From assembly GCA_947646735.1 (NCBI GenBank), contig CANTFK010000716.1, positions 1 to 64,000 on the forward strand: DNA of 64,000 nt. Reading direction: 5' to 3'. Every line of letters begins with the position of its first letter. Position 1 is the stretch's first letter. The stretch comes from Peronospora farinosa (taxonomy: Eukaryota > Oomycota > Peronosporomycetes > Peronosporales > Peronosporaceae). Positions 12,882 to 48,576 of this stretch are shown here, one piece after another. The notes under the pieces were generated by a model, which saw only the letters and a program-made list of their open reading frames with translations, did no database searches and had not been told where the DNA came from. Position numbers and translations under genes: made by a program.

Positions 12882-13337
12882 GACGGAACACCGTTGAAGC
12901 GTGTGAAGCGATGAAGCAGGGCACGAAGCGTCGGTAATGGCGTGGAAACGCTGTGACGAAGTACAAGATGTCGTGTCCCTGATTCTAGGTGGGACATCGA
13001 ACAGTTAGTCGAATGATGCTGGGACGCATCGTTCCGTTGACAGTTGAGGTATACCTGTTGGTATCGACTGTAGTCTAGTCGAACAGAGGGGGTTGTCACC
13101 TACGAGGTTTTTCCCTCCTCAATCCCAAAGTTGCTCAGTGGGAAGCAAGTGTTCCGTGTTCAATATTCCCTACTCTGTATTATTCACCCTACCGAACAAC
13201 GACACTCACCTGCGCAATGATAAGTGTGACAAAGGCTAGGGATTTGGCGTGTATTGTCGCCGCATAAGATGGCAAAGCGCTGTCAGTATTGGGTGACGCT
13301 TCCTATTCCTTAACGTTGACACTCGGTGCGGCTTTTG

Positions 13338-16861: not shown

Positions 16862-17465
16862 TGTAACAGGGTATCTAGTTACACGTAAACATTAAGTAAT
16901 ATACTTAATGTTTGGTCTAAAAGTATCCATAATTACTTTTGACCTGTCACTTGGGTGCGATACACAAATGTGATCCACCCTCGTGAATGTGATATTCATT
17001 TATGGATTCACATAAGAAGGGATGACGCTAGTTGAAGCTAGGCATCGCGACGTCTCAGAAGGACGTCAGTTGCGATCTTGAATCTCTAGATTTAAGATCA
17101 TGCGACAGGATACGCTTCTAAAGAGTCGCGTATCCGATCTATATATATATATATATAGCCAATCAGTAGTTAAGTATATATTTAGTTATAATTAATTAAA
17201 TATAGCTCAGTCTTGAATTTACTTAAACAAACGCACCACGCACGAGAAGCCGAAAGACTTCTGCGTGACGTCCGTGCTTTAGTGTTAAGAAGTTCGTTGC
17301 ACTCTCGCTTGAGTGAGAGGCAACTGGTGGTACGACTGCTTAAGCAGTCGACCAACCTCCCAACCACCCTCGCACGCGAAGGTAAGACGGTATAACCGCT
17401 TCCTCGCTTGTGCATAAGGTGTGTGCTAGTAGTACGAGGCAACTTCGTAGAAGTGCCCGTCTACA
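16862..17465 (+). repeat. 5' LTR of element 1
   Basis: It begins TGTAACAGGG and ends GTCTACA. It contains a (TA)n run near 17141-17157, an 18-bp palindrome CGACTGCTTAAGCAGTCG (17333-17350) and a TATA-like AATTAAATATAGC near 17195 that could position transcription. The minus-strand frame inside it (17182-17442) is repeated in the 3' LTR and is a by-product. Confidence 0.93.
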
Positions 17466-17467
17466 CT

Positions 17468-17485: not shown

Positions 17486-17524
17486 TTCCCACGACCCGTC
17501 TCTCTGAGCGTGCGTGTGGTTGAT

Positions 17525-18607
17525 ATGGTCCTTAATATGGACTGGAGTGACTTCCCTCACCTCTCCCAACATCATAGGAAGTTGGCAGAGCATATGGCGC
17601 AGGGACTTGGTGAACAAGCCCTGGTCAACCTCTTGCGTTGTCCTCCTGAGCAACATGTTGCTCAGTTGGAGCAATTTGAGGCGATTGTGCTCGGACAGAG
17701 TAGAAACGCGTCCGAGGTAAACAGTCAAGCCACCTCTGAGTCCATCACTAAGACTCAGGATGAGCTTAGGCTTGAGCAAGCACGTAATGAGGCGCTCAAC
17801 AGAACTGTTGAGACGCTCTCTGCCCGGCCTGCTCAACCGAGGCCCATTCGGATGGACCCTCCGAAGTTCGATGGAACTAGCCCTCACACGATTGTTCACT
17901 GGTTATTAGCAGTGGAGCAATGTGGAGTGGCGCAGCTCATCGAAGACGACACCAGAATGGTGTCGTATGCCATGTCCAACTTGCGTGGCAAAGCGTCAGA
18001 GTGGGCATACTCTGCGCTGATGGCTAATGCTGATGCATTTCCATCATGGGCGATCTTTAAGGCAAAGATTCGCGCCATGTATCAGCCGCCTAACAACGAA
18101 GTGTTGCTTATGGCGCGCTTCTTGGGAGCACGACAGGCGAAACGCTCTCTGCAAGAGTTCGTGCAGGAGATGCGTTCGCTGTCGGCGTCCATCAATGGGG
18201 AACAGATACCAGAGCGTATCAAAGTAGCCACGTTCATGAATGGACTTAGGCATGGCCCATCGCGTCAGGCCCTTTTCAGAAAGGTGCCAGCGACGATGGA
18301 AGAGGCAATTGACATTGCCTTAGTTGGGGAGCAATCCTACAACAGCGCCTCGACGACAGCCTATTACAGGCCGTCGTCCGAGAAGTCGGATGCCACTCCT
18401 ATGGAGTTAGGCAATGCAGATGTGATCTGCTACAAGTGCGGCAAGCGAGGCCATATGATGGCTCGCTGCTATGCCAAAGTAGATGCTGGTGCTAAGGCAG
18501 CCAGCAAAAGGTCTCCCAACCCGAAGGGAGGTGTGAAAAACCAGCGTGCACGACGCACGGGCTCAGCACCTGCCCAAGATGGGTCGGGAAATGCGGGAGC
18601 GCAGTAG
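17525..18607 (+). CDS. gag: Gag polyprotein, element 1
   Basis: This intact 360-residue frame starts at ATG 17525 and ends at TAG 18605-18607. It makes the virus-like particle that packages element RNA. The central part has the retrotransposon gag fold (WAYSALMANADAFPSW, FLGARQAKRSLQEFVQEMR), and a CCHC zinc knuckle CYKCGKRGHMMARC lies near the C-terminus, followed by a basic tail. A -1 frameshift signal overlaps the end and feeds pol. The sister gag in element 3 is broken, so this copy might supply particles to others. Confidence 0.93.
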   Translation: MVLNMDWSDFPHLSQHHRKLAEHMAQGLGEQALVNLLRCPPEQHVAQLEQFEAIVLGQSRNASEVNSQATSESITKTQDELRLEQARNEALNRTVETLSARPAQPRPIRMDPPKFDGTSPHTIVHWLLAVEQCGVAQLIEDDTRMVSYAMSNLRGKASEWAYSALMANADAFPSWAIFKAKIRAMYQPPNNEVLLMARFLGARQAKRSLQEFVQEMRSLSASINGEQIPERIKVATFMNGLRHGPSRQALFRKVPATMEEAIDIALVGEQSYNSASTTAYYRPSSEKSDATPMELGNADVICYKCGKRGHMMARCYAKVDAGAKAASKRSPNPKGGVKNQRARRTGSAPAQDGSGNAGAQ

Positions 18608-18625: not shown

Positions 18626-21600
18626 TCGCGGACTCTGAAGCTACCCCTAAGCTCAGAGTGATCGAACAAATGGGTAGCATAGTCCCTGAGGTTCCGAAAG
18701 GTCGGACCTCAACCCTTTTGGTCTATAGCGCTCGAGTACGAGGCTATGACCAAGTGATGACCCTTCTCGTGGATTCGGGTGCATCACAAAACTTTGTGAA
18801 ACTCGCGGCTCTGAAAAAAGAGACCGGCGAGTTATGAGTCGCTTTGCCAGGATGACAAGCGAGAAGAGGCGACCGTTCGCTTAGCGAACGATGTGCTCGT
18901 CAAATCGGAGGGAGTTCAAGTTGAACTCGCCTTCATTTTCAGTGACTTCTCCTGTAAAGAGAAGTTCACAGTGCTAGGTATGGAGAGTCCGTATGACCTC
19001 ATCCTAGGCATGCCTTGGTTGGCTAAACACCAACCATGGATAGACTGGCGTACACGCACAGTCGCTAGCTCTACGCAAGACACCGGAAAGGATGTGCTCT
19101 TGCGAGAGGCTTATGTAATTGATGCTGTGTCCAACACAGTCGAGGGTGCGACGATGGTATGTCAAATGGCACCAGGAACTACCCAGCTCGAAAGGAGTGG
19201 TGTAGTTGGAAGTGCCCTGGCAGAAAGCCAGGTGACACATATTCCTACCCAGGTCTAAAAGACTGGTGTAGTGAATGGGGCGATGACAGGTAGTCATGCG
19301 CTCAATAGTACTGCACAGAGCCGAGAGCCTGTGGCAGTTGATGGTGGGCTGACAGGAAGTCAAGCGCCACAAGAACTGGCACAGAGCCATGAGCGTGGTG
19401 CGGTTGGAAGGAGCGCGTTGGATGAGATAGCAACGACACCTTCTTCCAGGCCAAAGGTCGTGGTCACTCCAACAGAAAGCACCAGACATATTGAAGACGA
19501 TTAAGGGCACGTCGAAACGAGTGACCCTGGATCAGTCTCGGTCCAAGAGGACGGACCTACGAACGAGTTGTTCGAGGGCGTCGAAGACAAAATGCCGGAG
19601 GCATACTCAGTTGAGGTGCTCCAACCTGTTTTGGCATCTGCCGAGGAGATAGTAAATCTCTCGGAGATGACCTGGGATCTGTTCCTGTCCGAACTAAAGA
19701 AAGAAAAGATCCACGTGATGGTCGCACCAGTTCCAGAAGAGAACGTGGTGGACAGTTCCTCGTAGTCCGCAATGGATGAGAGCGTCTTTGCCCTGAAACC
19801 GACAAGAAGAAACGGTTCGCTGCTCAAGACTGGGAAGCCTTGAAGGACAGCCCGTTCTATGATGTTCTGTGGAAACACCGTGATGTGTTTCCAGCAGAAG
19901 TGCCGAGCCGCCTACCGGCCGATAGGGGCATTAGGAACGAGATTGACCTGGAGCCTGGCACCAAGTATTGTGTGACCAGGCAATGGCCGTTGCCGAAGGA
20001 ACAAGTCGATTACATCGATGAGTTCTTCGACAAGCGAGCCAAGGCGGGACATGTACGTGAGAGCAAGTCGCCTCACTGCAGCCCGACCTTCTGTGTGCGT
20101 AAAGCAACGGGTGGATGGCGCGTGGTTCATGATTATAATAAGCTGAACACGGCCACCATTCCGGCGCAAACGCCGATCCAGCGGAAAGATGTTTTGTTGA
20201 ATTCCATGGGAAAGTCAACTATCTTTTCCGCGTTGGATCTGAAGGATGGCTACTATATAGTTCTCATGAGAGATACTGATGTAGCCAAAACGGCACTAAG
20301 CACTTCAAGCGGTTTGCTGTGGGAGTGGCTTGTGATTACACATGGGTTGCAACATGCTCCAGCAACTTTCAACCGAGTGGCGGCTCACGTGATGCGTCAG
20401 CACCGTGCCTACGCGCCCCATTACTTTGACGATGTATTCGTGCATAGTAGGGCGGAAGAGGGTTTGAGCGCGATAGAGTCGCACAAGCATCATTTAGAAG
20501 CTGTGTTGCAGACTCTGGGTGACGCCCAATTATACGTGAACTTGCAAAAGTGCGTAATAAGGGTCCCCGAGATACCTGTGCTGGGCTGCATTGTTGTTGC
20601 ACACGGTGTTCGAGCAGACCCAGAAAAGGTAAAGGCTATCAAGGAATGGCCAGTCCCACGTCATGTGAAGGATCTGCGCCAATTCCTTGGGCTCACTAAT
20701 TACTTGCATAAGTACAGCAAGAATTATGCGGAGCAGACTAAGCCATTGTCTACCCTTTTAAAAAAGGATACAGAATGGACGTGGTCAAAGGAGCAAGTTG
20801 ATGCGTTCACTTCAGTGCAGCAAATCTTGAGAAGCACCGGTCTTGGCATTGCCAGGCGCGGATAAGATCTTTAGCGTCGTCTGCGATGCAAGCAATTTTG
20901 CAATCGGCAGCTCGCTCATGCAGAAGGATGACAACGGCGTTGACACCGTGTCATTTATTATCAGTCTCGGCTTTTAAAAGCTGCCGAGCTGAATTACCCT
21001 GTGCATGACAAGGAGCTACTTTCAATTAAGTATGCCCTTGTGAAGTTTCGGGTGCACTTCTTGGGCACCGAGCCTTTTGTGGATTTATAAGGATCACGCA
21101 TCACTGCGGACCGCTATAAATTCACCGCACCTCTCGCCTAGGATGGCGAGATGGCTAACATTCTTCTCTGAATTTACTTTCAAAGTTGAATATAAGCCGG
21201 GTAAGTCGAATGTCTTGGCTGACGCGGTATAGACTTCGAGGCAAGACACCAGGAAAGTGTGTCTCGTGCGAAAGCACAAGTTGATTCGTCAACATTGGCA
21301 GCCATGAAGGCGTACCATGTGACGAGCTCAATGGCCTCCGATATCAAGGAGTGTTACAGTCAGGACGAACATTGTCGCCTGCTGTTGGATCATTTTGGTG
21401 GACGAAAGGTTACCCTTCCGTCGCACCTCAAAGCGAAACTAAATCGCTTTAGTTACAGTGATGGCCTGTTATGGCATCAACTGTCACCCTGTGATCCCTT
21501 GAGAATCTATGTCCCTCATGACACAGATCTCAAGCTGATGATACTCCACGAGTGCCATGATGCGCCATCTAGTGGGCATCTGGGCCGTGAAAAGACATTC

Positions 21601-23421
21601 TTACGAGTGTCAGAGGAATTTTGGTGGCCCCACCTATATCGGTGGGTGGCCAACTATATTCGCTCTTGTGAAGAGTGTCAGCGCATAAAGCCTGCACCTT
21701 CAAACAGTGCGCCACTGAAGCCACTGCCGATTCCAACTGAATGTTGGAAGTCGGTCAGTTTGGACTTTATGTTTGGCTTACCGCCTGACCATAAAGGCAG
21801 GACGGGAATCGTCGTCTTTGTAGACAGACTGAGCAAGATGGTGCATTTGGCACCATGTAGCACCAAGATCTCAGGAAAAGAGGCTGCCCTCTTGTTTCTG
21901 TATCATGTGTATCGGCTACACGGGATGCCCGAGTCCATAGTATCGGACCGGGATCCGCGTTTTACGTCGGGTTTTTGGCGACATGTGTTCGAGCTGCTGG
22001 GTAGCAAGCTCCACATGTCAACCGCTGATCATCCCCAGACCGATGGCCAAACCGAACGGGCCAATCGGGTCGTGGCGGATGTGTTGCGTACAATAGCGAC
22101 TCCTAAAGAATGGAGAAAGCAATTGCCATTCGTGGAGTTTGCTATTAATAACAGTGTTCACGCCAGTATGGGTGAAACACCGTTTTACATTAACGGACTG
22201 AGTCATCCTCGAACGCCAGTCTTGTTTGTATGCAGCCCGAGTCTTAGTGGGGGAGGGCCCTCACTTCGCTCGGTGCGAATGCCAAAAAGGACCAAGGTTG
22301 CCCTAGTGACACTGCTACTTTAGCAGTGGTCACGACACCTACAGGTGTCACAAAGGAGGCACGGCAAGAAATGCCAGTGCTCCTTGACGATGACACTATA
22401 GTGTTATCAACAGCGTCGACCCATGAACGACCTCTTGGAGGCGTCATAGGCGAGCTGGATGCTAAAAGCGTGAGCGAAGCTCAGCGCTTTGTGGATGAGC
22501 GATTAGCCATCACACATAAAGTCCGTGACGCGATGGCAAGCGCACAGGACAAGCAAAAACAATATTGCGGACCAAAATGGTCGCAAAAACAATGAACACT
22601 TTAGTGTTGGGGACAAAGTGCTATTAAGTACTGCTACCCTACCTAAACATGCAATTTCTGTACTACCTGGTGGTACTACTAAGCTATTGCCCCGATTCAT
22701 TGGGCCCTTTACAGTGGTTGAAGAAGTTGGAGACCTAAATTATAGGCTCACTCTCCCACCGTATATGAAGACGCACCCCGTATTTTACGTGGGTCGTCTG
22801 AAACGGTATGTTGATCCAGAAGAGATCACATATCCACATCGGTCTAACGAGATCGATGGTGACGCCGACTGTGAGTCGAGCGTCGCGACCGATCAGGCGA
22901 CGAGGAAGCCGAAAGGCTCCCCGTGTATGAACGAGGCGATAGAGGACTCGGTGATCGAGGAGGACTCCGCGCTTGACGCGGGTCTCTCATCACCAGTCGC
23001 ACTAAAATGTCCAAGCGGGTCTTCAGGCGGTCATACCCCTGACGGTCTCACGCCCTCACATCACGCAGATCCGAGGTCAGTCGCGAGACTTGACTCTCGA
23101 GATCTGTCACCTGCCTCTTCAGCGCAGCAGACTCAGCCTGCGACTGAACAGCAGCAGGATAGGCAGCCGCGAGTAGGTGGGCGTAATCGCCGCTCCTATC
23201 GGGCGCCACCTGTGCTGGTGGACACGGAAGGGAATACGCGCTTCCTTGTTGGAAGGCTGTTGGCCCACTGGTTTGTGAAGCGAAAGCTCCAAATCCTTGT
23301 CCAGTGGAATGGTTACCCAACGAGCTTTGGCTCGTGGGAGCCTGTGGACGCTTTGCGCGTTGACGTGCCTGGGCTGGTGGCTGCTTATGTGAAGCAGCAC
23401 CAGCTGTCTTCTTTCTGCTAG
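18593..23421 (+). pseudogene. pol: Pol polyprotein, element 1 (frameshifted)
   Basis: The order is protease (LVDSGASQNF at about 18770), RT (FSALDLKDGYY, HYFDDVFVHS), RNase H, integrase with an H2C2 zinc finger (ECHDAPSSGHLGREK, CEECQRIK) and the DDE core ending DHPQTDGQTERANR, then a chromodomain-like tail (ILVQWNGYPTSFGSWEP). Lesions are a 1-bp gain near 18820, a TAA at 19256, a 2-bp gain near 20943, a loss of about 10 bp near 21229 and a shift near 22323. The integrase frame 21259-22323 is open. In the RT core MPQG is replaced by ITHG. Confidence 0.9.
22246..22257 (+). promoter_or_regulatory. Candidate central polypurine tract, element 1
   Basis: AGTGGGGGAGGG lies just after the integrase core. 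The same position of element 2 has TGGTGGGGGAGGG, which is identical to element 2's terminal tract. In element 3 the tract is degraded (AGTGGGGAAGGG). Central tracts prime a second plus strand in Ty1 and lentiviruses; here it is inference. Confidence 0.45.
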
Positions 23422-24287
23422 GTCCGGAAGGACTAGCAGAAGAAGCGTGGCGAGAATCAATTGGGGGTCGCTTACCGCCCATAATTTCATGCGCACGCTT
23501 CATGGCGAAGCTGATTCGCTGCGAACGCTGTTTCGTTGCATCTTCATGCAAGGTAACACGGCGCCGAAGTTCAGCTTCATATTCGTCGGCTGTTTCGTTA
23601 GAACGCAGCACGACTGGAATTGGGAAAGCACGACCAAGTGTTTTGCCCTGCTTTTCCACAAGGGAAAGACGCTTAAAATCTATGAGCGTCTATAGTGCCA
23701 CGCTGAAAAAGCGCTGCGCAAGACCCATCCGAGTTCATCCACTCAGATGGAGGTGGCATTGGTGGCAAGCCACCACTCACGTAGCCGCTCTCGCGACGGC
23801 GGGCTAGTGAGGCCGAAGGTGTACTTGGTGGAGCTTCAAGCTCACACTCACCTGAGTCTGACTCTCCATTATGGATTGTCAAGACATCAGCATGAGGAGT
23901 CACATCTGACTGAGTTGCGACTACTTTTTTCGAAGTTGTGTGCTCAGTCTTAGTCGCTGCGCTCGTAGGCGCAGGCAACGAGGCTTTACCTTCGCTTGCA
24001 GGAAGCATAAAAGCTTTCTCAAGGACGGGTGCCTCAAATGATTGGGACATATGTCTCATTAATGCGCTTTGCTCATCTCCACTTTGGGGTGATGGCAATG
24101 GCGTAGTCTAATTGAAATCTACAATGAGAGATGGATCTTCATCCACATTATCGTGAGATGGAAGATTCACCCCAGTGCCTGACGCACTTTGCGACGGCTG
24201 CGATAAATCGCGGCGCGTGCGCTTAGTGCTGGACTGCATGGGTGCCTTTGCAGGCGACCCATCGGCCTTACCACGTTTCGTTGGCAT
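23048..24287 (-). pseudogene. Antisense coding region of element 1, overlapping the pol 3' end
   Basis: ATG at 24287 opens a frame beginning MPTKRGKADGSPAKAPMQ with a nuclear-signal-like KRTRRD. It meets TAG at 24108-24110, continues in frame (SGDEQSALMRHMSQSFEAP) to 23673, and then continues one frame over through FKRLSLVEKQGKTLGRAF, SNETADEYEAELRRRVTL and a Ser/Pro/Gln-rich stretch to a coiled coil ending ALKRQVTDLESQVSRL at about 23060-23110. About 370 nt overlap pol on the other strand. Element 3 has the same layout. No known domain was recognised. Confidence 0.6.
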
Positions 24288-24393: not shown

Positions 24394-24999
24394 TGTAACA
24401 GGGCATCGAGTTACACGTAAACATTAAGTAATATACTTAATGTTTGGTCTAAAAGTATCCATGATTACTTTTGACCAGTCACTTGGGTGCGATACACAAA
24501 TGTGATCCACCCTCGTGAATGTGATATTCATTTATGGATTCACATAAGAAGGGATGACGCTAGTTGAAGCTAGGCATCGCGACGTCTCAGAAGGACGTCA
24601 GTTGCGATCTTAAATCTCTAGATTTAAGATCATGCGACAGGATACGCTTCTAAAGAGTCGCGTATCCGATCTATATATATATATATATATAGCCAATCAG
24701 TAGTTAAGTATATATTTAGTTATAATTAATTAAATATAGCTCAGTCTTGAATTTACTTAAACAAACGCACCACGCACGAGAAGCCGAAAGACTTCTGCGT
24801 GACGTCCGTGCTTTAGTGTTAAGAAGTTCGTTGCACTCTCGCTTGAGTGAGAGGCAACTGGTGGTACGACTGCTTAAGCAGTCGACCAACCTCCCAACCA
24901 CCCTCGCACGCGAAGGTAAGACAGTATAACCGCTTCCTCGCTTGTGCATAAGGTGTGTGCTCGTAGTACGAGGCAACTTCGTAGAAGTGCCCGTCTACA
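24394..24999 (+). repeat. 3' LTR of element 1
   Basis: It is nearly identical to the 5' LTR (about eight differences in 604 bp plus a length change in the TA run near 24673). It ends GTCTACA at 24999 and is followed by the target duplication CAACA. Confidence 0.93.
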
Positions 25000-26184
25000 C
25001 AACACGTTGGCACGACCTCATGCCATTGCGTCCTTTGTCAAAAATCACGCCAAACTAATAATTAAAAAAGGTGCAGAGCAAAATGAAGATAAGGTGGTGC
25101 TAGTGGTGTTGATGCTACTGAATTATATGGACACGTGGTTTGCTGCTGGAGCGGCCGTGGCTCGCGCAGTTCCACTTTATAAACACACTTTATACAGAAA
25201 AAATGCTCTGCCAATGACAGCAGAAAATTGATTCGGATAAGCTCGAGGTGGTGTATCAGACCCCATTGGCATGGGAGGAGACGACACTCTTGCAACATAC
25301 AGCCAATGCCATTCAATTGGCGACGAGACTTGTAGACGCTCCACCTAATGAACTGCACTCGGATGCATTCATTGCTGAAGCTCGTGCAGTGGCAGAAAGG
25401 ACCAAGGCTGCGATCGTGGTTATTCAGGGTGAAACACTTCATGAACAGGGATTCAGTGGCATATACGGAGTCGGAAAAGCTGCGACTCATAAACCAGTGC
25501 TGGTGTGTTTGAGTCACGTACCGGAAGGAGCTGAGGGTGCGAAAGGGGTGGCGATGGTTTGAAGCAGCGTGTCACGCAAAGAATACGACAGATAAGACTC
25601 CGTTGCATGTGGTACTATGTGTGGCTGAGAACTCAGTGGGACTGGACTCGATGCGTGTAGATGATGTACTGGCGATGTACTCGGGCAAAACGGTGGAGGT
25701 AAACAACACGGACGCCGAGGGAAGTCTTGTGCTTGCTGATGGCGTGGCGTATGCTGTCAAGCACCTAAATCCAAAGGTGATCGTGGATATGGCCACGTTG
25801 ATGGGAGCACGGAGCATTGCTACAGGTAACCGTATCGGTGCTGTCTACACAAATGACGGTAGTCTGGAGGAACTGGCTGTTAAGGCGGGTAAAGTATCTG
25901 GCGACTTGGTGCACTCCATGCCGTATGCGCCGGAGTTTCACCGCCTCGGGTTCACGAGCAACATAGCCAACATGAAGAACTCGGTGAAAAACCGTGCTAA
26001 CGCGCAGGTGTCGTGCGTCGGGCAGTTCATCGCAAACCATTTGGGAGACTTCGAGCATACGGGCAAGTGGCTGCACGTCGACATGGCATTTCCAGTGTTC
26101 ACAAGTGATGACGAGCGATCAACAGGCTTTGGTGTGGCGTTTATCCAGTCGCTGCTCAAGGAGATTGACAATGCAGGCTGGTAA
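25000..26184 (+). pseudogene. M17 leucyl aminopeptidase (NPEPL1-like) pseudogene, 3' part
   Basis: From the duplication the frame reads TLARPHAIASFVKNH, then AAGAAVARAVPLY, shifts near 25220, and continues TRLVDAPPNELHSDAF and GIYGVGKAA to VAMV at 25560. About 36 codons are then missing with a frame change; this block should hold the GKGIVYDTGG-type metal-binding segment. The rest (YSGKTVEVNNTDAEGSLVLA, MATLMGARSIATG, MKNSVKNRANA) runs open to TAA 26182. The M17 signature NTDAEGRL reads NTDAEGSL, with the catalytic Arg replaced by Ser at 25723-25725. The gene is inactive several times over. Confidence 0.9.
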
Positions 26185-28214: not shown

Positions 28215-29386
28215 TGATAGCTACGTATTTCTACGTGCCACCACATGCACACCACTGCGAGGTGCCTTATTACTATCCAACACCACCGTGCACCTTGCGC
28301 TGTCCATTTCATTTGGAGCCAGACCTAAGTCCCCTCGTAATGCCTCCTTGACGCTTGCCCACCGTGAGGGAAGCCTCTCCATGTCGCTTGTCAGAGTTGT
28401 GTGCTCTTCCTCGAGTCCATCGCTATGTTATCCAGAGCATCCGCCATTTTATTGAAATGACGAAGATGATGTCGCCAAGTGGACACGTTTAGCCGATCAG
28501 CGATCCTCCTGCATTGTCGGTATAGGTCTTGCAAATGCCGTGCTTTCGGCTCCTTTCTTCTCCTCAACTGCCCCAAAACGAGGCTACTGTCGCCAACGAC
28601 GTGAAGTCCATTTAGGTTGTAACCTTGAGCTTTCCTGAGACGAAACAGAAGGCCCCTGTACTCAGCCACATTGTTGGTCGTGTAAGGGGCGGCGAGGGAG
28701 ACGCTGCTCATCCATAGGATAAACGACGGTTTTGTGGCCTTTCCGTTTACAACAAATATAGAGCCGGCGCCCTCGGGGCCCGAATTACCTCATGCACCCC
28801 GTCAAAGAAGAGTATCGTGTTCTCGCGATCACTTCTCCAATGGAGCTCCTGTATTACGATCCCCGAAGTGGCAGCAAAAGCCGCATGTACAACTCATGCC
28901 GCACGACAGACCGCCTCATCTTGTGTTCTCGTCAGTACTTTTTCTCGTAGCGCTAGCCTCCCATGATGTACCCGGCCTCGTAGTAGCGCTGTCGATCGAT
29001 TTAACGAGTTTCTCAGAGTCACGTCCCTGCATCTGCATCTGCGGTTCCAGACCACCTGGAGCGTGTGTAGTACTCCTAGCCGCCACTACTCGTTTAAAGT
29101 GTCATAGCACCATCCATATATCTCCTCCTGCTGTGCCTCTGTCAGGTTTCCGCAAAGTTGATGTAGTACCTTCCAATCCCGGTTGGCACCATTGGCAATT
29201 TAAAACCAAAATTAGGACGAGGATCGTTAGCCTTCAATTGCAAACCAAGTTCTGCCCACTTCCTCAGAAACTCTCTCCAAAGTGGCCGCGTTGCTCGACA
29301 TTCCCACCAGATATGCGACTTGTTGATGCCGAATTCTCGACACTCCGGCAATGGACAGCCAACGACCGTTGGACGGAATACCAGGT
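28215..29386 (-). pseudogene. LINE (non-LTR retrotransposon) 3' fragment
   Basis: On the minus strand a reverse-transcriptase zinc-binding segment (ECREFGINKSHIWWECRATR) is followed by an RNase H domain (YTTNNVAEYRGLL, VVGDSSLVLGQL, RRIADRLN, FNKMADAL) and a short tail. This order is typical of the 3' part of oomycete LINEs. It is broken between the two domains and cut at 29386 by element 2. The 234-codon plus-strand frame opposite it is a shadow. Confidence 0.75.
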
Positions 29387-30016
29387 TGTAACGGGGTTAC
29401 ACGACGGTTGTAGCGTCTTTCCGAGAGTTTACGGTTAAACTCCCCTTTGTATTGCATATAATGCATTATGATACTTCTCTTAAGAGAGGTATTAAGTATA
29501 AACGTGAAAGATACGGTATTCGGTAATACCGTATCTTATCGATTAGGATTCGATAAAACAATAATGCTGTACTAAGTACATCATACACAGATGTTTAGAC
29601 GATACGTCGTTCAATAGCAAAGTCTGCATATAATAATTACTATTATCGTAATTAATCTACTTAGAGTAGCACTATTCATAAAATCTTAAAGCATAAATAA
29701 AATCAGTACTCATTTTGAGTTTAAGATCGCAAGTCGCTCTGACTTGATCTCTTGTGCACTTCGTGCGTTGGTTCTCTGAACCTCTACGCTTCTAGCTTGT
29801 TCTTGCACTCTATGCGTTGGTCTCTGAGCCTTAAGCTTATTGCTTGACTGACTAAAAGTCTCTTTCCTCGTTCCGTAGAACAGGGTGCTTTAAGTCGTTT
29901 AATTAGTTCCTTAGAACTAAGTGGCTTTTTGCCTTAACTCTATTTAGTTCTCTAGAACTAAGAGGCTTCCAGCCGAAAGTCTTCCTCTGGCTAAAGAGCT
30001 GTGCAGCTCCGCTACA
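29387..30016 (+). repeat. 5' LTR of element 2
   Basis: It begins TGTAACGGGGTTACAC and ends GCTACA. It contains a strong hairpin GATACGGTATT-CGGT-AATACCGTATC (about 29510-29535) and two TTAGTTC/GAACTAA hairpins near 29904 and 29945. It is unrelated in sequence to the family-1 LTR apart from its termini. Confidence 0.92.
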
Positions 30017-30076
30017 CTTGTTAGCACTAGTAGTCAATCCTACACCTAAGTCTTTCAAGACTGACCCTCTGTGAGG

Positions 30077-31067
30077 ATGGAGAATCAAAATCACCTCTCT
30101 GAGGCACAACGACTCGCCTTAGATAAATTATCTGCGTTCGTCGGGCCCGATCAAATCGAGGCCCTTTTGGCCCAAGGCCCCAAGTTCTAAATGCTCGTCT
30201 TGAGGCCTTTATGCGCTATGAGGCAACGCTCCTCGGGCAGGTCCATGACCAGGCAGCGTCAGCTGCGCCTATACAGTACATTCCAGTACCTGTGCCCGAT
30301 GCAGAGCCAAAGGCTCGCCCACTTGTTTTAAACGTAAAGACCTTCGAGGGGAAGGAGGAAGAAAATCTTCTCCTCTGGATCCGAGAAGTTGAAATGGCAA
30401 TGGATGCCGCCATGCTTGTATCCGATAAGCAATGAGTTGGCCTGTCCATATATAAGCTCTGTGGAAGATCTATAGAGTGGGATCTAACGAGCGATGTCTC
30501 TGTAAATGCTGCATTCCCCACATGGGAAATGCTAAAAAAGCAATCAACTTGCGTGTTTGCACCGCCTAATCAGGCTTATCGCGTGCTCTTACGCTTCTTA
30601 GCTACCCGACAGGGTAAGAAAGAATTGTCGGACTATGTCCAAGAGTTACGAACTCTCATTGCTGCTATGCAGCAGGACCCTCTGGCAGAGGAAGTCCGAG
30701 TAATCATTTTTTATGGAAGGACTTCGTATTGGGGTCGCCAGGACGAAAGTTTTCCGTGTCCAGCCTTCGACTTTCATAGAGGCAGTAAGCGGCTAAATTT
30801 AATTTTAAAACTGCTCGATATGGTCTGCCATGGTATAATCCAAATGCCTCTAACAGGGCGGAACCCATGGACCTCAGCCATGCTGAAGAAGCTGAGCTTC
30901 AAGCTGCAGAGCAGCAAAATAAAATCCGTAGATGTTACATGTGCGGAAGCACTAGGCACCTCCGCCCTAGCTGTCCGCTGCAAAAGCAACGTTCAAATCG
31001 GCAAAGCCGAAACCCTGCTCCTAGCCAAAAGGCGAGCACCGCAGGGGAAAACGTCAGCTCCCAGTAG
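30077..31067 (+). pseudogene. gag: Gag, element 2 (broken)
   Basis: ATG at 30077 begins [18 protein letters not shown]. The frame shifts near 30190, has a TGA at 30433-30435 and shifts again near 30750-30870. Recognisable parts are the gag core (FLATRQGKKELSDYVQELR) and the CCHC knuckle CYMCGSTRHLRPSC. The C-terminal frame ends at TAG 31065-31067. An imperfect hairpin, CCCAGTAGG with CCTAATGGG, encloses this stop as in element 1. Confidence 0.85.
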
Positions 31068-34000
31068 GTGCGGGGCGCCCTAATGGGAAAAAACTTAGTT
31101 CTGTTGGATCTTTAGGAGGTAAAGGTAAACAGGGCTTAGCCCCAGGTGGTTCTGTGGATGCTTCCATAGAACAAAATTACAAGCCAGGCTTGTTGGTTGT
31201 GTCGGCAACCGTTAAGGGTTTTGAGAAACCATGGTCAATTTTAATTGACTCAGGGGCGTCAGGTAATTATGTCCGACGTCGTTCCCTTGAATGGAGTCAG
31301 CGGCATGATGAGGTGCTAAAAGCACAAGAGGGTGACAGTATAACCGTGCGTCTCGCAACAGGTGTACGTGTTACCGTTCCTATAGTTCCGTTGAACTTAG
31401 GTGTGAAGTTCTTAGACTTCAATAGCGTTGAACGCTGTCTTGTCCTAGATTTGGACTCGAGATATGATCTCATTCTCGGTGGAACGCCATGAGCCATGGA
31501 TCGATTGGAGATCCAAAACATTAGGCGCAACGCGCAATGTTCCTAGCGAAGCTTTGGAGAGTCATGAACCTACCTTCGCTAGAAAACAAAAGTGCTATTG
31601 GCGCGAGCCATTAACTGATTCCGTTAGTGTGCTGGACATTGTAGTGTCTGAGTTAATAAACTCCAATGTCAACAATAATAGTGTCGAGCAGAGCTCAATG
31701 ACATCTAGTGGAACGGCACGTACTCCGTTGAGTGACACTCAAAGTAATATTGAGACACTGGATGTCGGTAATGACATCGGCTCTCGTATAGAGCGAGTAA
31801 AGATCGATGACCTTGTTAGTGGTGTCATCTGTAATAGTGACTCACTGGATGTCGATACTGACATCGGCTCTCGTATAGGGCAGGTCAAGGTCAAGGGATC
31901 TGTTGACCTTGTGGATGATGGTATCTCAAGTACGTTGAAGAGTACGGTCTCGTCAATGAGACGGCAGCGTCGCCAGATGGCGGCTGCGAGACGCAAAGCG
32001 TCTGTTTTATCGCATAATAATGTCAGTGACCAGTTGTACACCCTGGTCAACGGAGTGACAGGTGATGTAGATGGTGAGGTTGACCTTGAGACCCTCCCAT
32101 CATTAAATGCTCTTTTAGAGCTAGACGAAATGTCTGTGGATGAATTTCATCAGGCCTTGAAGGCAGGTGCTCTATCCAATATGGTGGTCATTCGACCTAA
32201 CCTCGAGCTGAACTCATCCTCGCTTGTCGATGAGACAGTCCTTGAAGATACAAAAGCGGCACTGAGTGCACGTAGTGGGGCATCTATTCTGAAAGACCCT
32301 TTAGATCCCTACCATCCTTTAGTTAAGGAATTCCAGGATGTGGTGTGTCACGATCCACCGTCGGTTCTACCACCTGATAAGGGTGTACGTCATGAAATTG
32401 ACTTGGTTCCCAGAACCAAATACTGTGTACACGGCAGTGGCCTTTGCCCAAAGAACAGTGTGACGTCATTGACGAGTTCTTTCGTGCAAAGCACGCGGCG
32501 GGCATGGTGCGTGAGAGTAAATCTCCGCACTCGACACCCACTTTCTGTGTTAAGAAACCAAATGGTAAATGGCGTATCGCTCATGCTTATAATAAGCTCA
32601 ATGCGGCCACTATACCTGCACAGACACCGTTACCTAGAAAGGATGTTCTTTAGAACAATATGGTCGATTGTACCATGTACAGTGCGCTCGACTTAGTCGA
32701 TGGATATTACCAATTGCTCATGCGAGCTAGTGATATTCCACTTACTGCTGTTAGCACTCCGAGCGGTATGCTCTGGGAGTGGTTAGTGATGCCCCAGGGG
32801 CTATCTAATGCTCCGGCTACATTTAACCGTTTGGTGACGCAATTGTTTCGACCCCATCGAAGTTATGCACAGACGTATTTTGATGACATTTTTGTCCATA
32901 GCCGAGCTGAACATGGGCGGTCAGATATTGAGAACCATAATGTTCATTTACGAGCAGTGCTCGAGTGCATGCGCACTAATAAATTATATGCTAATGCATC
33001 TTCGGGGCCGAAGAGATTCCCTTTCTAGGGTGCTGCATTGGGAAGCGAGGCCTCCGAGCGGATCCCGCTAAGGTCAAAGTCATAGTCGATTAGCCTGTTC
33101 CACAGTCTTAGAAGGACTTGCGTAAATGGCTTGGCCTTGCCGATTACTTACACAAGTATAGCGAAAAATACGCTGACATGGCTCGGCCATTATCCAATTT
33201 ACTAAAGAAGGATGTGGAATGGTGTTGGCACGCCAAATACGAAAGGTGCTCTCAAGCGGTGAAGGCGAGCCTTCTACATGCTCCTATTTTGGCTTTGCCA
33301 GACCCTGATCGACCGTTTAGCGTCGTCTGTTACACGTCGGATTTTGCCATTGGAAGTGCTATGATACAAACAGATGATGAAGGCCGTGAGCGTGTGATCG
33401 CTTTTGAATCTCGCCAGCTGAAAGCTGCAGAAAAGAACTTTTATTTCATGACAAAGAACTACTTGCGATTAAGTATGCCCTGTTCAAATTCAGAACTCAT
33501 CTGCTTGGATCGAAGCCTTTTCTGATCTATACTGATCATGCGTATTTACGCACTTCGACTCAGTGGCCTCATCTCTCGCAGAGAATGGCCAGATGGCTGT
33601 CATTCTTTGCCGAATATAACTTCGAGGTGAAATATAAGCCAGGCAAGCAAAATGCTTTGGCTGATGCGTTGTCACGCAGACCTTACTATGAGCTTGGTCA
33701 TGTTACTACGTTGTCGTCTTCTATCATTGATATCATTCGTACGGCGTATGCTAAAGATGATCACTGTATAGCGTTGCTACATGCTCTTGGCAGTGATGAG
33801 TTTAAAGACTCGGACATTAAATTGTCGGCAAGATTACGTGCGAGCCTCCATCGATATTCTATCGATCAGGGGCTGTTGTACTATCGTACAGATGTGGTGG
33901 ATTCTCCGCTTATTGTGGTTCCTCATGACGAGGACCTGAAGTATCGTATCCTCTATGAGGTACATGACACCGCCATCGGTGGTCATTTGAGTCGTGAAAA

Positions 34001-35492
34001 GACCTATGGGGCAGTATGCCAAGGTTATTGGTGGCCCAAATTATACAAATGGGTGAGCACATATGTGCGTACGTGTGAAACGTGTCAACGGGTGAAATTA
34101 TCGCCCCATTCGGCAGCGCCGCTGGATAGTTTGCCTATTCCCACTGGATGCTGAGAGTCCATTAGTATGGATTTTGTATTTGGCCTACTGAAAGATTCGC
34201 ACGGCAATACAGGTATTGTGGTCTTTGTGGACCGTTTGAGCAAGATGGCTCACTTAGCGGCTGTCCCAGAATCGATCGATGGTGTTGGTACAGCAGAGCT
34301 GTTTATCGACTGAGTGTTTCGCCAACATGGCTTGCCAGTGGCAATTGTTTCTGATCGTGATTTTCGTTTTACGAGTAAATTTTGGAAGTCCGTCTTTCAG
34401 GTGCTGGCCACACGTTTGGACATGTCCACAGCGGATTATCCGCAGGCCGATGGTCAAACTGAACGCGTGAATCGCGTTGTTGAAGATATCCTACGCAGCG
34501 TTTGTGCTGAAACACCTAAGCGATGGAGCGCTATGCTCCCTGTAGTTGAGTTTGCACTCAATAATTCCGTGCACGCCTCTACCGGCTACACTCCGTTCTA
34601 TGTGAATGGCATTACACACCCACGCGTTCCGTTAACGCTACCACCGAGTGGTTCAGGGCTTGGTGGGGGAGGGGTTGCCGATCGGCTTGCTGATGTCAGT
34701 CCTAATACTGTTAGGAAACAGGTAAATGCGTTTCTCGCAACGCGACTAAATGTCTTACGACATGTGCAAGATGCAATGGCTGATAGTCAAGATAAACAAA
34801 AGGAATATGCAGATGCGAAAGGCAGAGGTTGTATTAATGATTATGAGGTCGGAGACCAAGTATTATTAAATGCTAAAAATCTACCTACCAATGTAGTATC
34901 CTTTGTCTTTAAGACGAAGTTGCGCCCGCGCTTTATCGGAACCTTTAAGGTCATTGCCAAGAAAGGCACAGCGTATACGCTTAACTTGCCGCGCAAATTG
35001 CGTACACATCCTGTGTTCTATGTCGGCATGCTCAAAAGGTATCGGGATCCGTCCCAAGTAAACATTAAGGCGCTCGCGCCGAGCCCATTGGCATTGTCAC
35101 GGGACGAAGCATCTGCGCCAACAGGTCAAGCTGACCCTGCAGTCGGGTCCGACTCTCTTCCAGGGACTCAAGCCGGGAGTTCATCGTCTGCCTCTCTTCA
35201 CGAAGGGACCGCACCTCTTGAACAAGCACGGCATGAGCTTGTGCCGATACACCGGCCTCCTCCGGCTTTGCTCGATGCGCAGGGGAACCTACAGTTCCAT
35301 GTGGAGCGTCTACCGCAGAAGCGTCGCCGCCATGGTCAAAACCAGTATCTGGTAAATTGGCGGGGTTATCCCGAGTCGTGGAACTCATGGAAGTTTGAGA
35401 CTCCCCTTCGGCAGGACTGCCCATACGCCGTGGACGTTTTTGAGCGTCGTGCGCAGGGTCAGCCTGTTGGCGCTGACGCTTCTCACCAGTAA
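31060..35492 (+). pseudogene. pol: Pol, element 2 (broken)
   Basis: It is read in the -1 frame relative to gag. The protease has LIDSGASGNYV at about 31240. RT ([40 protein letters not shown]) is followed by RNase H (FTVV-like FSVVCYTSDFAIGS), the integrase H2C2 finger (YEVHDTAIGGHLSREK, CETCQRVK), the DDE core (YPQADGQTERVNR) and a chromodomain-like end (YLVNWRGYPESWNSW). Breaks include shifts near 31490 and 32430, stops at 32651, 33027 and 34152, and a TGA at 34311. A purine tract lies at 34661. Confidence 0.9.
34661..34673 (+). promoter_or_regulatory. Candidate central polypurine tract, element 2
   Basis: TGGTGGGGGAGGG occurs here and again at 36433-36445, directly next to the 3' LTR. It is about two thirds along the element and at the same pol position as the tract in element 1. 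Confidence 0.55.
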
Positions 35493-36340
35493 TGGTGAGG
35501 GTAGGCGGGTTAGCGACCTCGGGCTGTCGTGGACTCGCGGCTACAGGGGTAGCCTAAACATTGGGATGCTGGGTAGCAGACGCATAATGCGTTCGTTGGG
35601 ATTTCAATTTTCCCCGGGCCTTCAATTTACCGTAATCGTAACGCATCTTCCGCTCGAGTCGAACATCTACCACATCGGCACTTGCCCGTAGGGCCCACAT
35701 GCTGCTTAAACGTCGCGCATAATGCGCCCAGCGGCTGAAAGCCGTGTCTTCTTCGTCCTCGGTTTCCCCCGCGAACAGAAGGATGGAAACACCCTTTATG
35801 GGAGGAACTGGCGCACCGCGCACTTGCCTGTTAAGGTGTGCCAAGTATTGGCTTTGTGTAGTAATGTGGGGTTCCAGATATCGTTGTCGAAGTGCCGTGC
35901 GCGTGGCAACATCCTCAGGTGAAATGGCCTCAGGCCCAATGGTCCAGCCAGAAAGGGAATGCCCAGATGCTTCCTTTAGGCGTTCTTCCACCGTAGGTGG
36001 TTTGAACCTGTACTGTCGGTGGTCCTGAATCCTCACCATACTCTTCGTCCGGCGCTTGGCACCTTCCTCTTGGTCAATGGTCTGCTGCTGTTGTTCGTCG
36101 AGTGCGCCGTTGACGATAGGTCAGGCGGGTCACGTAACGCTGTTAGCGCATCTGCAGCACCACTTTCAGGGAACGGATTTGGTGCATGACTAGTGTCATC
36201 TTCACCCGTGAGGGTGGCTAAAGAGACCCATCGGGTTTCACAGAGACGGTGTCACTTTCGTAATCAACCGCTTCATCAAGGTCGCCTTCAATGGTGTCCC
36301 GTGGAGTCGTGTTACTCACTGCCAGGAGGCGTCATGTTAT
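35065..36340 (-). pseudogene. Antisense coding region of element 2
   Basis: Minus-strand frames include an acidic start (DTIEGDLDEAVDYESDTV, from about 36320), a 161-codon stretch 36039-35554 (FKPPTVEERLKEASGHSL, DEEDTAFSRWAHYARRL) and a 119-codon stretch 35424-35065 that ends in a coiled coil (VQEVRSLREERQTMNSRLE). Stops and frameshifts separate them. The last part overlaps pol (to 35492) on the opposite strand. The order acidic/Ser-rich start, charged middle and terminal coiled coil matches family 1, though no residue-level match was found. Confidence 0.5.
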
Positions 36341-36432
36341 GTGCCGTGAACAAACCGTAAGGTTTTAACGTTCGCTTAAGCACTACCTCTAAGAGGAAAA
36401 ATGTCGAGTGACATTCTATGGGAACGTCAGTC

Positions 36433-36445
36433 TGGTGGGGGAGGG
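36433..36445 (+). promoter_or_regulatory. Polypurine tract of element 2
   Basis: TGGTGGGGGAGGG abuts the 3' LTR start at 36446 and is the expected plus-strand primer. Confidence 0.8.
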
Positions 36446-37075
36446 TGTAACGGGGTTACACGACGGTTGTAGCGTCTTTCCGAGAGTTTACGGTTAAACT
36501 CCCCTTTGTATTGCATATAATGCACTATGATACTTCTCTTTAGAGAGGTATTAAGTATAAACGTGAAAGATACGGTATTCGGTAATACCGTATCTTATCG
36601 ATTAGGATTCGATAAAACAATAATGCTGTACTAAGTACATCATACACAGATGTTGAGACGATACGTCGTTCAATAGCAAAGTCTGCATATAATAATTACT
36701 ATTATCGTAATTAATCTACTTAGAGTAGCACTATTCATAAAATCTTAAAGCATAAATAAAATCAGTACTCATTTTGAGTTTAAGATCGCAAGTCGCTCTG
36801 ACTTGATCTCTTGTGCACTTCGTGCGTTGGTTCTCTGAACCTCTACGCTTCTAGCTTGTTCTTGCACTCTATGCGTTGGTCTCTGAGCCTTAAGCTTATT
36901 GCTTGACTGACTAAAAGTCTCTTTCCTCGTTCCGTAGAACAGGGTGCTTTAAGTCGTTTAATTAGTTCCTTAGAACTAAGTGGCTTTTTGCCTTAACTCT
37001 ATTTAGTTCTCTAGAAATAAGAGGCTTCCAGCCTAAAGTCTTCCTCTGGCTAAAGAGCTGTGCAGCTCCGCTACA
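36446..37075 (+). repeat. 3' LTR of element 2
   Basis: It is 630 bp and about 99% identical to the 5' LTR. It ends GCTACA and is followed directly by GTCGCGTATC, which is internal family-1 LTR sequence. Confidence 0.92.
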
Positions 37076-41500: not shown

Positions 41501-43359
41501 CACGAGTGCCATGATGCGCCATCATAGTGGGCATCTGGGCCGTGAAAAGACATTCTTACGAGTGTCAGAGGAATTTTGGTGGCCCCATACATATCGGTGG
41601 GTGGCCAACTATATTCGCTCTTTCCAAGAGTGTCAGCGCATAAAGCCTGCACCTTCTAGAAGTGCGCCACTGAAGCCACTGCCGGTTCCAACTGAATGTT
41701 GGAAGTCGGTCAGTTTGGACTTCATGTTTGGCTTACCACCTTACCATAAAGGCAGGACGGGGCTCTTCGTCTTTGTAGACAGACTGAGCAAGATGGTGCA
41801 TTTGGCACCATGTAGCACCAAGATCCCAGGAAAAGAGGCTGCCCTCTTGTTTCTGTATCATGTGTACCGACTACACGGGATGCCCGAGTCCATAGTATCG
41901 GACCGGGATCCGCGTTTTACGTCGGGTTTTTGGCGACATGTGTTTGAGCTGCTGGGAAGCAAGCTCCGCATGTCAGCCACTGATCATCCCCAGACCGATG
42001 GCCAAACAGAACGGGCCAATCGAGTCGTGGCGGATGTGTTGCGTACAATAGCGACTCCTAAAGAATGGAGCAAGCAATTGCCATTCGTGGAGTTTGCTAT
42101 TAATAACAGTGTTCACGCCAGTATGGGTGAAACACCGTTTTACATTAACGGACTGAGTCATCCTCGAACGCCAGTCTCGTTTGTACGCATCCCGAGTTTT
42201 AGTGGGGAAGGGCCCCTCACTTCGCTCGGTGCAAATGACAAAGAGGGCCAAGGTTTCCCTAGTGACACTGCTAATCTAGCAGTGGTCACGGCACCTATAG
42301 GTTAGAGGCACGGCAAGAAATGCCAGTGCTCCTTGACGATGACACCATAGTGTTATCAACAGCGTCGACCCATGAACGACCTCTTGGAGGCGTCATAGGC
42401 GAGCTGGATGCTAAAAGCGTGAGCGAAGATCAGCGCTTCGTGAATGAGCGATCATCAATCACACGTAAAGTCCGTGACGCGATGGCAAGCGCACAGGACA
42501 AGCAAAAACAATATTTCGGACCAAAATGGTCGCAAAAACAATGAACACTTTAGTGTTGGGGACAAAGTGCTATTAAGTACTGCTACCCTACCTAAACATG
42601 CAATTTCTGTACTACCTGGTGGTACTACTAAGCTATTGCCCCGATTCATTGGGCCCTTTACAGTGGTTGAAGAAGTTGGAGACCTAAAGTATAGGCTCAC
42701 TCTCCCACCGTATATGAAGACGCACCCCGTATTTTACGTGGGTCGTCTGAAACGGTATGTTGACCCAGAAGAGATTACATATCCACATCGGTCTAACGAG
42801 ACCGATGGTGACGTCGACTGTGAGTCGAGCGTCGCGGCCGATCAGGCGACGAGGAAGCCGAGAGGCTCCCCGTATACGAACGAGACGATAGAGGACTCGA
42901 TGAACGAGGAGTACTCCGCGCTTGACGCGGGTCTCTTATCACCAGTCGCTCATGTAAATCAAAGCGGAGTTTCAGGCGATCGTACCGCTGACGATCCCTC
43001 GAACTTACAGCGCTTATATACGAAATCAGTCGCGAGACTTGACTCGAAAGATCCGCCACCTCTTTCTTCAGCGCATCTATCTCCGCCTAACAACAGGATA
43101 GGCAGCCGCGAGTAGTTGGGCGCAATCACCGCTCCTATCGGGCGCCACCTGTGTTGGTGGACACGGAAGGGAATACGCGCTTCCTTGTTGGAAGGCTGTT
43201 GGCCCACCGGTTTGTGAAGCGAAAGCTCCAAATCCTTGTCCAGTGGAAAGTATTCCCGAAGATTTTGACTCTTGGGGACCGGTTGACGCGTTGCGTGTCG
43301 ACGTGCCTGGTTTGGTGGCTGCTTATGTAAAGCAGCATCAGCTGACGTCTTTCTGCTAG
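38541..43359 (+). pseudogene. pol: Pol, element 3 (broken)
   Basis: The protease frame is open to TAA 39204-39206 (LVDSGASQNF). RT at 39786-40811 keeps intact motifs (DGYYQVLM, MPQGLQHAPATFN, HYFDDVFVHS), unlike element 1. RNase H is shifted near 40800 and 41030, integrase is shifted by a 1-bp gain at about 41523, and the linker has a TAG at 43113. The chromodomain-like tail ends at TAG 43357-43359. The stop at 39204 has its counterpart in element 1, so it predates the split or is tolerated. Confidence 0.88.
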
Positions 43360-44255
43360 GTCCGGATGGACTAGCAGAAGAAGCGTGGCGAGAATCAATT
43401 GGGGGTCGCTTACCGCCCATAATTTCATGCGCACGCTTCATGGCGAAGATGCTTCGCTGCGACCGTTGTTTCGTTGCATCTACATGCAAGGTAACACGGC
43501 GCCGAAGTTCAGCTTCATAGTCGTCGGCTGTTTCGTTAGAACGCAGCACGACTGGAATTGGGAAAGCACGACCAAGTGTTTTGCCCTGCTTTTCCACAAG
43601 GGAAAGACGCTTAAAATCTATGAGCGTCTATAGTGCCACGCTGAAAAAGCGCTGCGCAAGACCCATCCGAGTTCATCCACTCAGATGGAGGTGGCATTGG
43701 TGGCAAGCCACCACTCACGTAGCCGCCCTCGCGACGGCGGGCTAGTGATGCCGAAGGTGTACTTGGTGGAGCTTCAAGCTCACACTCACCTGAGTCTGAC
43801 TCTCCATTATGGATTGTCAAGACATCAGCATGAGGAGTCACATCTGACTGAGTTGCGACTACTTTTTTCGAAGTTGTGTGCTCAGTATTAGTCGCTGCGC
43901 TCGTAGGCGCAGGCAACGAGGCTTTACCTTCGCTTGCAGGAAGCATAAAAGCTTTCTCAAGGACGGGTGCCTCAAATGATGGGGACATATGTCTCATTAA
44001 TGCGCTTTGCTCATCTCCACTTCGGGGTGATGGCAATGGCGTACTCTAATTGCTGTCAACAATGTGAGACAAGTCATCATCCGCACAATAGGGGGATGGA
44101 CCAGTATTCTCTGCTGACAAGCTGACATTAGATGTCGGCGTTGTCACAGAGAAACTTAGCAACGGCTGCGAGTTATCGCGGCGCGTGCACTTTGTGTTAG
44201 TCTGCATAAGCGTTTTTGCAGGCGACCCATAAGCCTTATCACGCCTTGGCGGCAT
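42793..44255 (-). pseudogene. Antisense coding region of element 3
   Basis: ATG at 44255 begins MPPRRDKAYGSPAKTLMQ with CTRRD, aligning with element 1's antisense start although much of the sequence between has diverged. TAG at 44046 and the later frame change at about 43610 sit at the same places as in element 1. The end, in a third frame, is again a coiled coil (ALKKEVADLSSQVSRLISY) and here runs on to 42793. It overlaps pol on the other strand. Confidence 0.58.
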
Positions 44256-48567: not shown

Positions 48568-48576
48568 CCGGAGTTG

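What the first reader, a model, noticed from the sequence alone, without database searches (positions are those of the whole stretch)
23048..24287. Antisense coding region at the pol 3' end of gypsy family 1, conserved between copies that differ in DNA
Elements 1 and 3 each carry a minus-strand coding region opposite the pol tail. In the segment where the two elements diverge, the antisense peptide keeps its heptads: ALKRQVTDLESQVSRL against ALKKEVADLSSQVSRL. The diverged starts still share MP-x-x-R-x-KA-x-GSPAK and TRRD. This is what selection on an antisense protein would leave. Antisense ORFs are known in some plant Tat-type elements; I know of none described for this oomycete family.
Basis: partly seen in the sequence, partly recalled or inferred. 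Interest (0 to 1): 0.88.

Follow-up and report, generated by a model that had tools for sequence, protein, structure and literature searches.

The report
Retrotransposon gene on the opposite strand
A family of mobile DNA elements in what looks like a downy mildew genome carries an extra protein gene written backwards across the end of its main gene; both copies in this window are broken, but other copies keep it open and natural selection appears to have preserved the protein.

Summary
The antisense frame is real and longer than reported: about 481 codons (element 1: 22844-24287, minus), from just inside the 3' LTR back over the last ~575 nt of pol, opposite the chromodomain. Both window copies are pseudogenes. 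Elsewhere in the genome it is open: 23 of 88 scored places match residues <=2 to >=485 of relative P0007 without a stop. Relatives of 46-62% identity keep the full length. In 37 copies, private substitutions are neutral in the antisense frame (omega ~1.04), those in 2-3 copies not detectably constrained (0.87), those in >=4 copies constrained (0.35, P=0.001). A second chromodomain family (element 2) has its own antisense frame, 443 codons and stop-free at 30 of 150 scored places, in the same phase against pol and ending just past the integrase SH3 domain. Best reading: an inherited antisense accessory gene, probably a nuclear oligomeric regulator (function inferred). Such genes are known in plant Tat/Retand elements; my searches listed none for oomycetes. 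New variant of a known kind. No transcript evidence; selection in the overlap itself is not established.

The parts
22844..24287 (-). Element 1 antisense gene (homologue of the 481-codon frame); pseudogene in this copy: stop at codon 60 (24108-24110), two 1-nt deletions, stop at codon 414 (23048-23050)
23051..23689 (-). Longest surviving open piece of the element 1 antisense gene (end of core domain, linker, start of coiled coil)
22525..23421 (+). Element 1 pol 3' end: integrase SH3 (SH3_Tf2-1) and chromodomain (here below Pfam's cut-off, above it in copy L009); overlaps the antisense gene by ~578 nt
16862..17466 (+). Element 1 5' LTR (98.5% identical to the 3' LTR)
24394..25000 (+). Element 1 3' LTR; the antisense ATG lies ~107 nt inside it
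17510..18607 (+). Element 1 gag (Retrotrans_gag, zinc knuckle)
19840..22323 (+). Element 1 pol region with reverse transcriptase (19840-20865) and integrase (21259-22323) pieces
42793..44255 (-). Element 3 antisense gene; pseudogene, shares three lesions with element 1 and has further indels; ends diverged
35065..36120 (-). Element 2 (different chromodomain family) antisense gene, C-terminal part (188 + 162 codons); in-frame TAG at 35554-35556 in this copy, stop at 35065-35067; 443-codon open frame in other copies; 5' end not determined
34314..35492 (+). Element 2 pol 3' end: integrase SH3 (~34851-35045) and chromodomain (~35295-35450); overlaps the antisense gene by ~428 nt in the same relative phase as family 1
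29383..37075 (+). Element 2, LTRs 29383-30016 and 36442-37075 (99.05% identical)

Best explanation
It is an antisense accessory gene of a chromodomain Ty3/gypsy lineage. Shown from sequence: a ~481-codon minus-strand frame lies between pol and the 3' LTR and runs back over the pol end; old variants in its non-overlapping part show purifying selection while private ones are neutral, as expected of a gene needed while elements multiply and idle after insertion; the parts of the two proteins alternate across the strands (the antisense coiled coil and S/R-rich tail lie opposite the pol linker, the chromodomain lies opposite an antisense stretch of low predicted order, and the antisense stop falls ~31 nt past the integrase SH3 domain); a second family has a similar layout and the same phase. 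Inferred: it is transcribed from a promoter in or beside the 3' LTR; the protein enters the nucleus through its basic N-terminus, oligomerises through the coiled coil, contacts RNA or chromatin through the basic S/R tail, and regulates the element's own expression or nuclear steps of its life cycle.
For: Open frames: 23 of 88 scored places of 1186 candidates; 15 of 37 fetched copies have full length, no stop and no frameshift. Relatives P0007 62%, P0012 49%, P0013 47% (19 member sequences), P0014 46%, 480-559 aa. Conserved modules separated by gap-rich linkers in five full-length members: core 169-275 has 43 of 107 invariant residues and no gap column, variable 68-145 has 8 of 78 and 42 gap columns. 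Selection, non-overlapping part: private variants S63/N174 (omega 1.04); variants in >=4 copies S21/N17 against 11.3/26.4 expected (0.35), codon positions 9,7,23, P=0.001; a 1242-nt pol stretch from 19 copies used as control shows neutral private and constrained shared variants. Six of the more divergent copies, each compared with L013, give pN/pS 0.32-0.61 in that part, each P<0.03. Coiled coil: model helix 366-435, with the 40 residues at pLDDT >=90 in about 391-430. Second family. Relatives P0012 and P0019 carry upstream residues (YTIPP..FTFCK) resembling those that the family 1 LTR/polypurine junction encodes (inference), so they too seem to sit beside an LTR.
Against: No transcript or protein evidence. 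Variants in 2-3 of 37 copies are not detectably constrained (0.87, P=0.27), while the pol control is in its 2-3 class (P=0.0018, of 19 copies). In the overlap with pol no frequency class is significant in either frame, and pairwise values are mixed (antisense 0.40-0.81, pol 0.65-1.25). The >=4 class holds only 39 sites, and 18 of the 20 copies were picked for long open frames; the six pairwise comparisons share one partner. Homology of the family 2 protein to family 1 is weak: the family 1 HMM does not find it (E 7.2), hhalign gives probability 1.8%, E 0.027, and Smith-Waterman against shuffles gives P=0.002 to 0.89 over 12 comparisons. The nuclear role rests on composition only; Pfam gives only weak coiled-coil type matches (best CLZ, E 0.0013).
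Confidence: 0.77

Rival explanations
1. A host gene or gene fragment was captured backwards into the element once and is carried along passively; its open frame is inherited, not selected.
For: Transduction is named as one possible origin of such frames in plant elements (PMC11963269, passages). Nothing found here says where the gene came from.
Against: Old variants are constrained, relatives at 46-62% identity keep full length and domain pattern, and two families have the layout. Passive cargo would hardly persist through that divergence.
Confidence: 0.08
2. The open frame is a by-product of constraint on the sense strand (pol codon bias and chromodomain conservation leave the antisense frame open).
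For: It could explain part of the overlap: the 50 residues opposite the chromodomain have no gap column, and overlap selection is not assigned clearly to the antisense frame.
Against: 868 of ~1443 nt do not overlap pol and have no open sense frame (8.2-15.3 stops per copy in the three sense-strand frames), yet show the constraint. In the diverged C-terminal segment between elements 1 and 3 changes lean silent in the antisense frame, not in pol.
Confidence: 0.04
3. The minus-strand RNA, not the protein, is what matters (double-stranded RNA or silencing control).
For: Antisense transcripts can feed small-RNA silencing; raised for plant elements (PMC7264820, passages).
Against: Third-position pattern and protein-level conservation across ~46% identical relatives point to a protein.
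Confidence: 0.06
4. The antisense genes of family 1 and family 2 arose independently.
For: Profile comparisons are not significant; P0001, P0012 and P0013 do not align to the family 2 core better than shuffles.
Against: Similar position, same relative phase (1 in 3 by chance), stop just past the integrase SH3, C-terminal coiled-coil-like stretch opposite the pol linker, and a core stretch aligning at P=0.002 to P0014, 0.004 to P0007 and 0.016 to P0015.
Confidence: 0.35

Closest known systems
Antisense ORFs between pol and 3' LTR of plant Tat/Retand elements (Retand ORF4 with Transposase_28/TRP28 PF04195; maize Grande gene23; rice RIRE2; PvRetro13)
   Same: Same place and orientation; present in many copies and in distant relatives; several are SMC-like, presumed DNA-binding or nuclear; function unknown (PMC11963269 and PMC7264820, passages seen).
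   Different: No PF04195 match in any of 7 members scanned; chromodomain elements of an oomycete; the frame overlaps pol by ~575 nt, while the word 'overlap' does not occur in the main text of either paper.
HTLV-1 HBZ (retroviral antisense leucine-zipper protein; recalled; a 3' LTR antisense promoter of HTLV is mentioned in PMC7264820)
   Same: Antisense gene near the 3' LTR, coiled-coil protein, thought regulatory.
   Different: No sequence relation tested or claimed; no bZIP family among the 8 Pfam families matched at E<=1.
Chronos elements of Peronosporales (PMC5348765, passages seen)
   Same: Oomycete Ty3/gypsy with a chromodomain at the pol end.
   Different: Chronos is described with a second RNase H; Pfam finds none in the family 1 pol scanned. 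'Antisense' does not occur in that paper's main text.

Membership tests
Plant TRP28 antisense proteins (PF04195) | Transposase_28 domain | tested here: not met
   not among the 8 families matched by any of 7 members at E<=1
[quoted passage not shown]
   the share of all copies that are open is not measured, since only the best-scoring places are listed
Antisense aORF (aORF-3R) of LTR retrotransposons, as a kind | Antisense transcription | not testable with these tools
   no RNA data held
Ty3/gypsy LTR retrotransposon with chromodomain | LTR pair, gag, RT, RNase H, integrase, then chromodomain | tested here: met
   (LTR pair in 15 of 22 elements; domains scanned in element 1 and in copies L022 and L009)
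Chronos | Additional RNase H next to the native one | tested here: not met
   only RT_RNaseH-type matches in the L022 pol piece (930 aa); a degenerate second domain is not excluded. The element at 47.6-54 kb in the window does match RVT_3

The most novel reading that the evidence does not exclude
An overlapping antisense gene is an ancestral, vertically kept trait of an oomycete chromodomain Ty3/gypsy lineage: two families whose pol ends are only 30% identical share it in the same phase, with ordered parts of the two proteins alternating across the strands. It evolved independently of the plant Tat antisense genes, so oomycete and plant elements converged on an antisense nuclear accessory protein.
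Probability: 0.52. Interest if true: 0.8.

Novelty: new variant of a known kind. Interest (0 to 1): 0.7.

Why it matters
Conserved antisense accessory genes are described for plant LTR elements and for retroviruses; none of the titles and abstract openings listed by my searches describes one in an oomycete element, though I opened only three papers, by passages, and subscription journals are mostly not held. A gene of this kind overlapping pol in two chromodomain families would add to the reported convergence of oomycete and plant retrotransposons, give a natural case of coding on both strands, and make the question of what such proteins do testable across lineages. It also suggests that 'unnamed protein product' entries in Peronospora genomes (the cluster of P0002 holds 19 member sequences) are transposon genes.

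Tried and rejected
Intron idea: a GTGAGT...TAG pair in the minus strand of element 1 seemed to rejoin the broken frames; rejected because open copies need no splicing and the break is explained by two 1-nt deletions. Pfam and PDB searches with family 1 proteins gave only weak coiled-coil type matches. An IMG/VR scan found no relative by two peptide patterns. Structure model: only part of the coiled coil is confident (mean pLDDT 47.1, pTM 0.21), so no fold search was run. A third window element (47.6-54 kb) has a plus-strand frame 46162-46779 beyond its pol end, but genome hits place related sequence inside frames of up to ~1000 aa, so it looks like another repeat and was not counted. Comparison of stop load between pol and antisense was dropped because copies were chosen partly for long antisense frames. 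For the pol control, 3 of 22 elements (L014, L023, L025) had no single match of 900 nt and were left out, leaving 19. In some searches only two-allele columns were used; other variable columns were dropped. Whether any of the 37 copies are segmental duplicates of each other was not checked.

Full report
What is there. Element 1 (LTRs 16862-17466 and 24394-25000, 98.5% identical) is a Ty3/gypsy element with gag, reverse transcriptase, integrase, an integrase SH3 domain and a chromodomain (the chromodomain is below Pfam's cut-off here and above it in copy L009). In the window's own genome (46.85 Mb, 274 contigs; unnamed, inferred to be a Peronospora-type downy mildew from a 94% protein match to P. 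effusa) a search with the 203-aa piece scored 150 of 778 candidate places; 150 matches are listed, with open frames of up to 537 codons.

Twenty copies were fetched with surroundings (18 chosen for long open frames, 2 for divergence). In 15 of 22 elements examined (these 20 plus the two window elements) an LTR pair was found, 90.0-98.8% identical, about 600 bp. The antisense frame starts ~107 nt inside the 3' LTR and ends inside pol; in copy L013 it is 481 codons, and the pol stop falls at its codon 290, so ~575 nt overlap. Of 37 copies aligned, 15 have full length, no stop and no frameshift. Elements 1 and 3 do not: they share a nonsense codon 60 and two 1-nt deletions and each carries more. 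The window copies are pseudogenes that record an ancestral gene. Without regard to how copies were picked, 23 of 88 scored places (of 1186 candidates) match residues <=2 to >=485 of P0007 with no stop and a single frame of >=484 codons.

Is it selected? Variants were sorted by how many of the 37 copies share them. In the 868 nt that do not overlap pol, 241 private variants are neutral in the antisense frame (S 63 against 63.4 expected, N 174 against 168.2); 71 variants in 2-3 copies are not detectably constrained (S 22 against 19.3, omega 0.87); 39 variants in four or more copies lean to silent change (S 21 against 11.3, N 17 against 26.4, omega 0.35; codon positions 9, 7, 23), P=0.001 by resampling. 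A 1242-nt pol stretch from 19 copies serves as control: private S 82 against 76.7, P=0.26; 2-3 copies S 29 against 18.4, P=0.0018; three or more S 16 against 8.0, P=0.0014. The pattern of neutral young and constrained old variants is what a gene needed for multiplication and idle after insertion should show. Six of the more divergent copies against one open copy gave pN/pS 0.32-0.61 in the non-overlapping part (each P<0.03), 0.40-0.81 for the antisense frame and 0.65-1.25 for pol in the overlap; these comparisons share one partner and are not independent. In the overlap the frequency test is not significant for either frame. Each frame's third position there faces the other's second position, so a flat pattern is expected under double constraint, but weak constraint would look the same.

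Relatives. The protein search returned 15 proteins, the profile search 18, and a core-domain search 12; the first two scored only the ~7,990 candidates sharing most words. Named ones are unnamed products of Peronospora effusa and P. farinosa; diverged ones (P0007 62%, P0012 49%, P0013 47%, P0014 46%) come from contigs of 2.1-2.9 kb of unnamed source and keep the full length. Other hits are shorter or partial (P0015 419 aa; P0017-P0019 234-249 aa), and P0016 departs from the family after its first third. In five full-length members, conserved modules are the basic N-terminus (13 of 30 invariant), an acidic motif at 47-67 (11 of 21), the core 169-275 (43 of 107, no gap column) and the coiled coil 375-440 (23 of 66); stretches 31-46 and 68-145 are variable and gapped. 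The model shows a helix 366-435, confident in about 391-430, and a low-confidence helical core. No Pfam family fits beyond weak coiled-coil type matches. The open frames of P0012 and P0019 reach upstream into residues that look like the translated LTR/polypurine junction of family 1, which suggests, without proving, that they also lie beside an LTR.

A second family. Element 2 (29383-37075, LTRs 99.05% identical) is a chromodomain family whose pol end is 30% identical to that of family 1. Opposite its pol end the minus strand holds 188 + 162 codons separated by one TAG. In the genome, 30 of 150 scored places (of 382 candidates) matching the C-terminal piece have a stop-free match in an open frame of exactly 443 codons (for the other piece). 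Its stop lies ~19 nt past the integrase SH3 coding region (~31 nt in family 1), and the codon phase against pol is the same. A coiled-coil-like stretch, seen by eye and by weak Pfam matches (E 0.02-0.04), lies opposite the pol linker; no model was made for it. Sequence similarity of the cores is weak: Smith-Waterman P=0.002 to P0014, 0.004 to P0007, 0.016 to P0015, but 0.14 to P0013, 0.40 to P0001 and 0.89 to P0012; hhalign finds the same stretch at E=0.027, probability 1.8%; the family 1 HMM gives E=7.2. I think common origin more likely than not.

Mechanism. Inferred: transcription from the 3' LTR side, a nuclear protein (KRTRR-like basic start), self-association through the coiled coil, nucleic-acid contact through the S/R-rich tail, and regulation of the element's own life cycle. 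The interleaving of ordered and poorly ordered parts on the two strands would explain how both proteins can be kept.

Known relatives of the kind. Plant Retand elements carry antisense ORFs between pol and the 3' LTR, 97% of clusters with a TRP28 domain, and Grande's gene23 has its own promoter (PMC11963269, PMC7264820; abstract and passages seen). The oomycete protein does not match TRP28. The paper on convergence of oomycete and plant elements describes chromodomain and extra RNase H capture in Chronos and does not use the word antisense in its main text (PMC5348765, passages). Pfam finds no second RNase H in the family 1 pol scanned. Literature searches in the held library listed no title or abstract opening describing an antisense gene in an oomycete retrotransposon; most subscription papers are not held, and early work on Phytophthora gypsy elements (recalled) was not seen.

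Verdict. The protein's role and its expression remain untested. On re-checking the calls I lowered the best-explanation confidence from 0.78 to 0.77 and the novel case from 0.55 to 0.52, because the 2-3-copy class is not constrained and the family 2 link rests on weak alignments.

Noticed in passing
29383-37075: Second chromodomain gypsy family with its own antisense frame (443 codons, stop-free at 30 of 150 scored places).
   Followed up: partly
47623-53917 (-): Third gypsy element with gag, RT, RNase H and a second RNase H-like domain (RVT_3), i.e. Chronos-like by that feature.
   Followed up: no
46162-46779 (+): 205-aa frame beyond the pol end of the third element; 155 matches in the genome, some within frames near 1000 aa, so probably part of another repeat.
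   Followed up: partly
7205-7902 and 13333-14030: 698-bp inverted repeat, 98% complementary, 5.4 kb between the arms; not identified.
   Followed up: no
1-601: Family 1 LTR copy, ~92% identical, at the window start.
   Followed up: no
1137-2387 (+): Host gene for an OST48-like oligosaccharyltransferase subunit.
   Followed up: no
37075-37414: Element 3's 5' LTR is cut short exactly where the 3' LTR of element 2 ends, which suggests an insertion or deletion there.
   Followed up: no
56959-57192: 18-bp tandem repeat array inside an open frame.
   Followed up: no
L050:125-781: Decayed copy of an older subfamily whose antisense N-terminus resembles that of element 3 slightly more than element 1; hint that element 3 is a mosaic.
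   Followed up: partly
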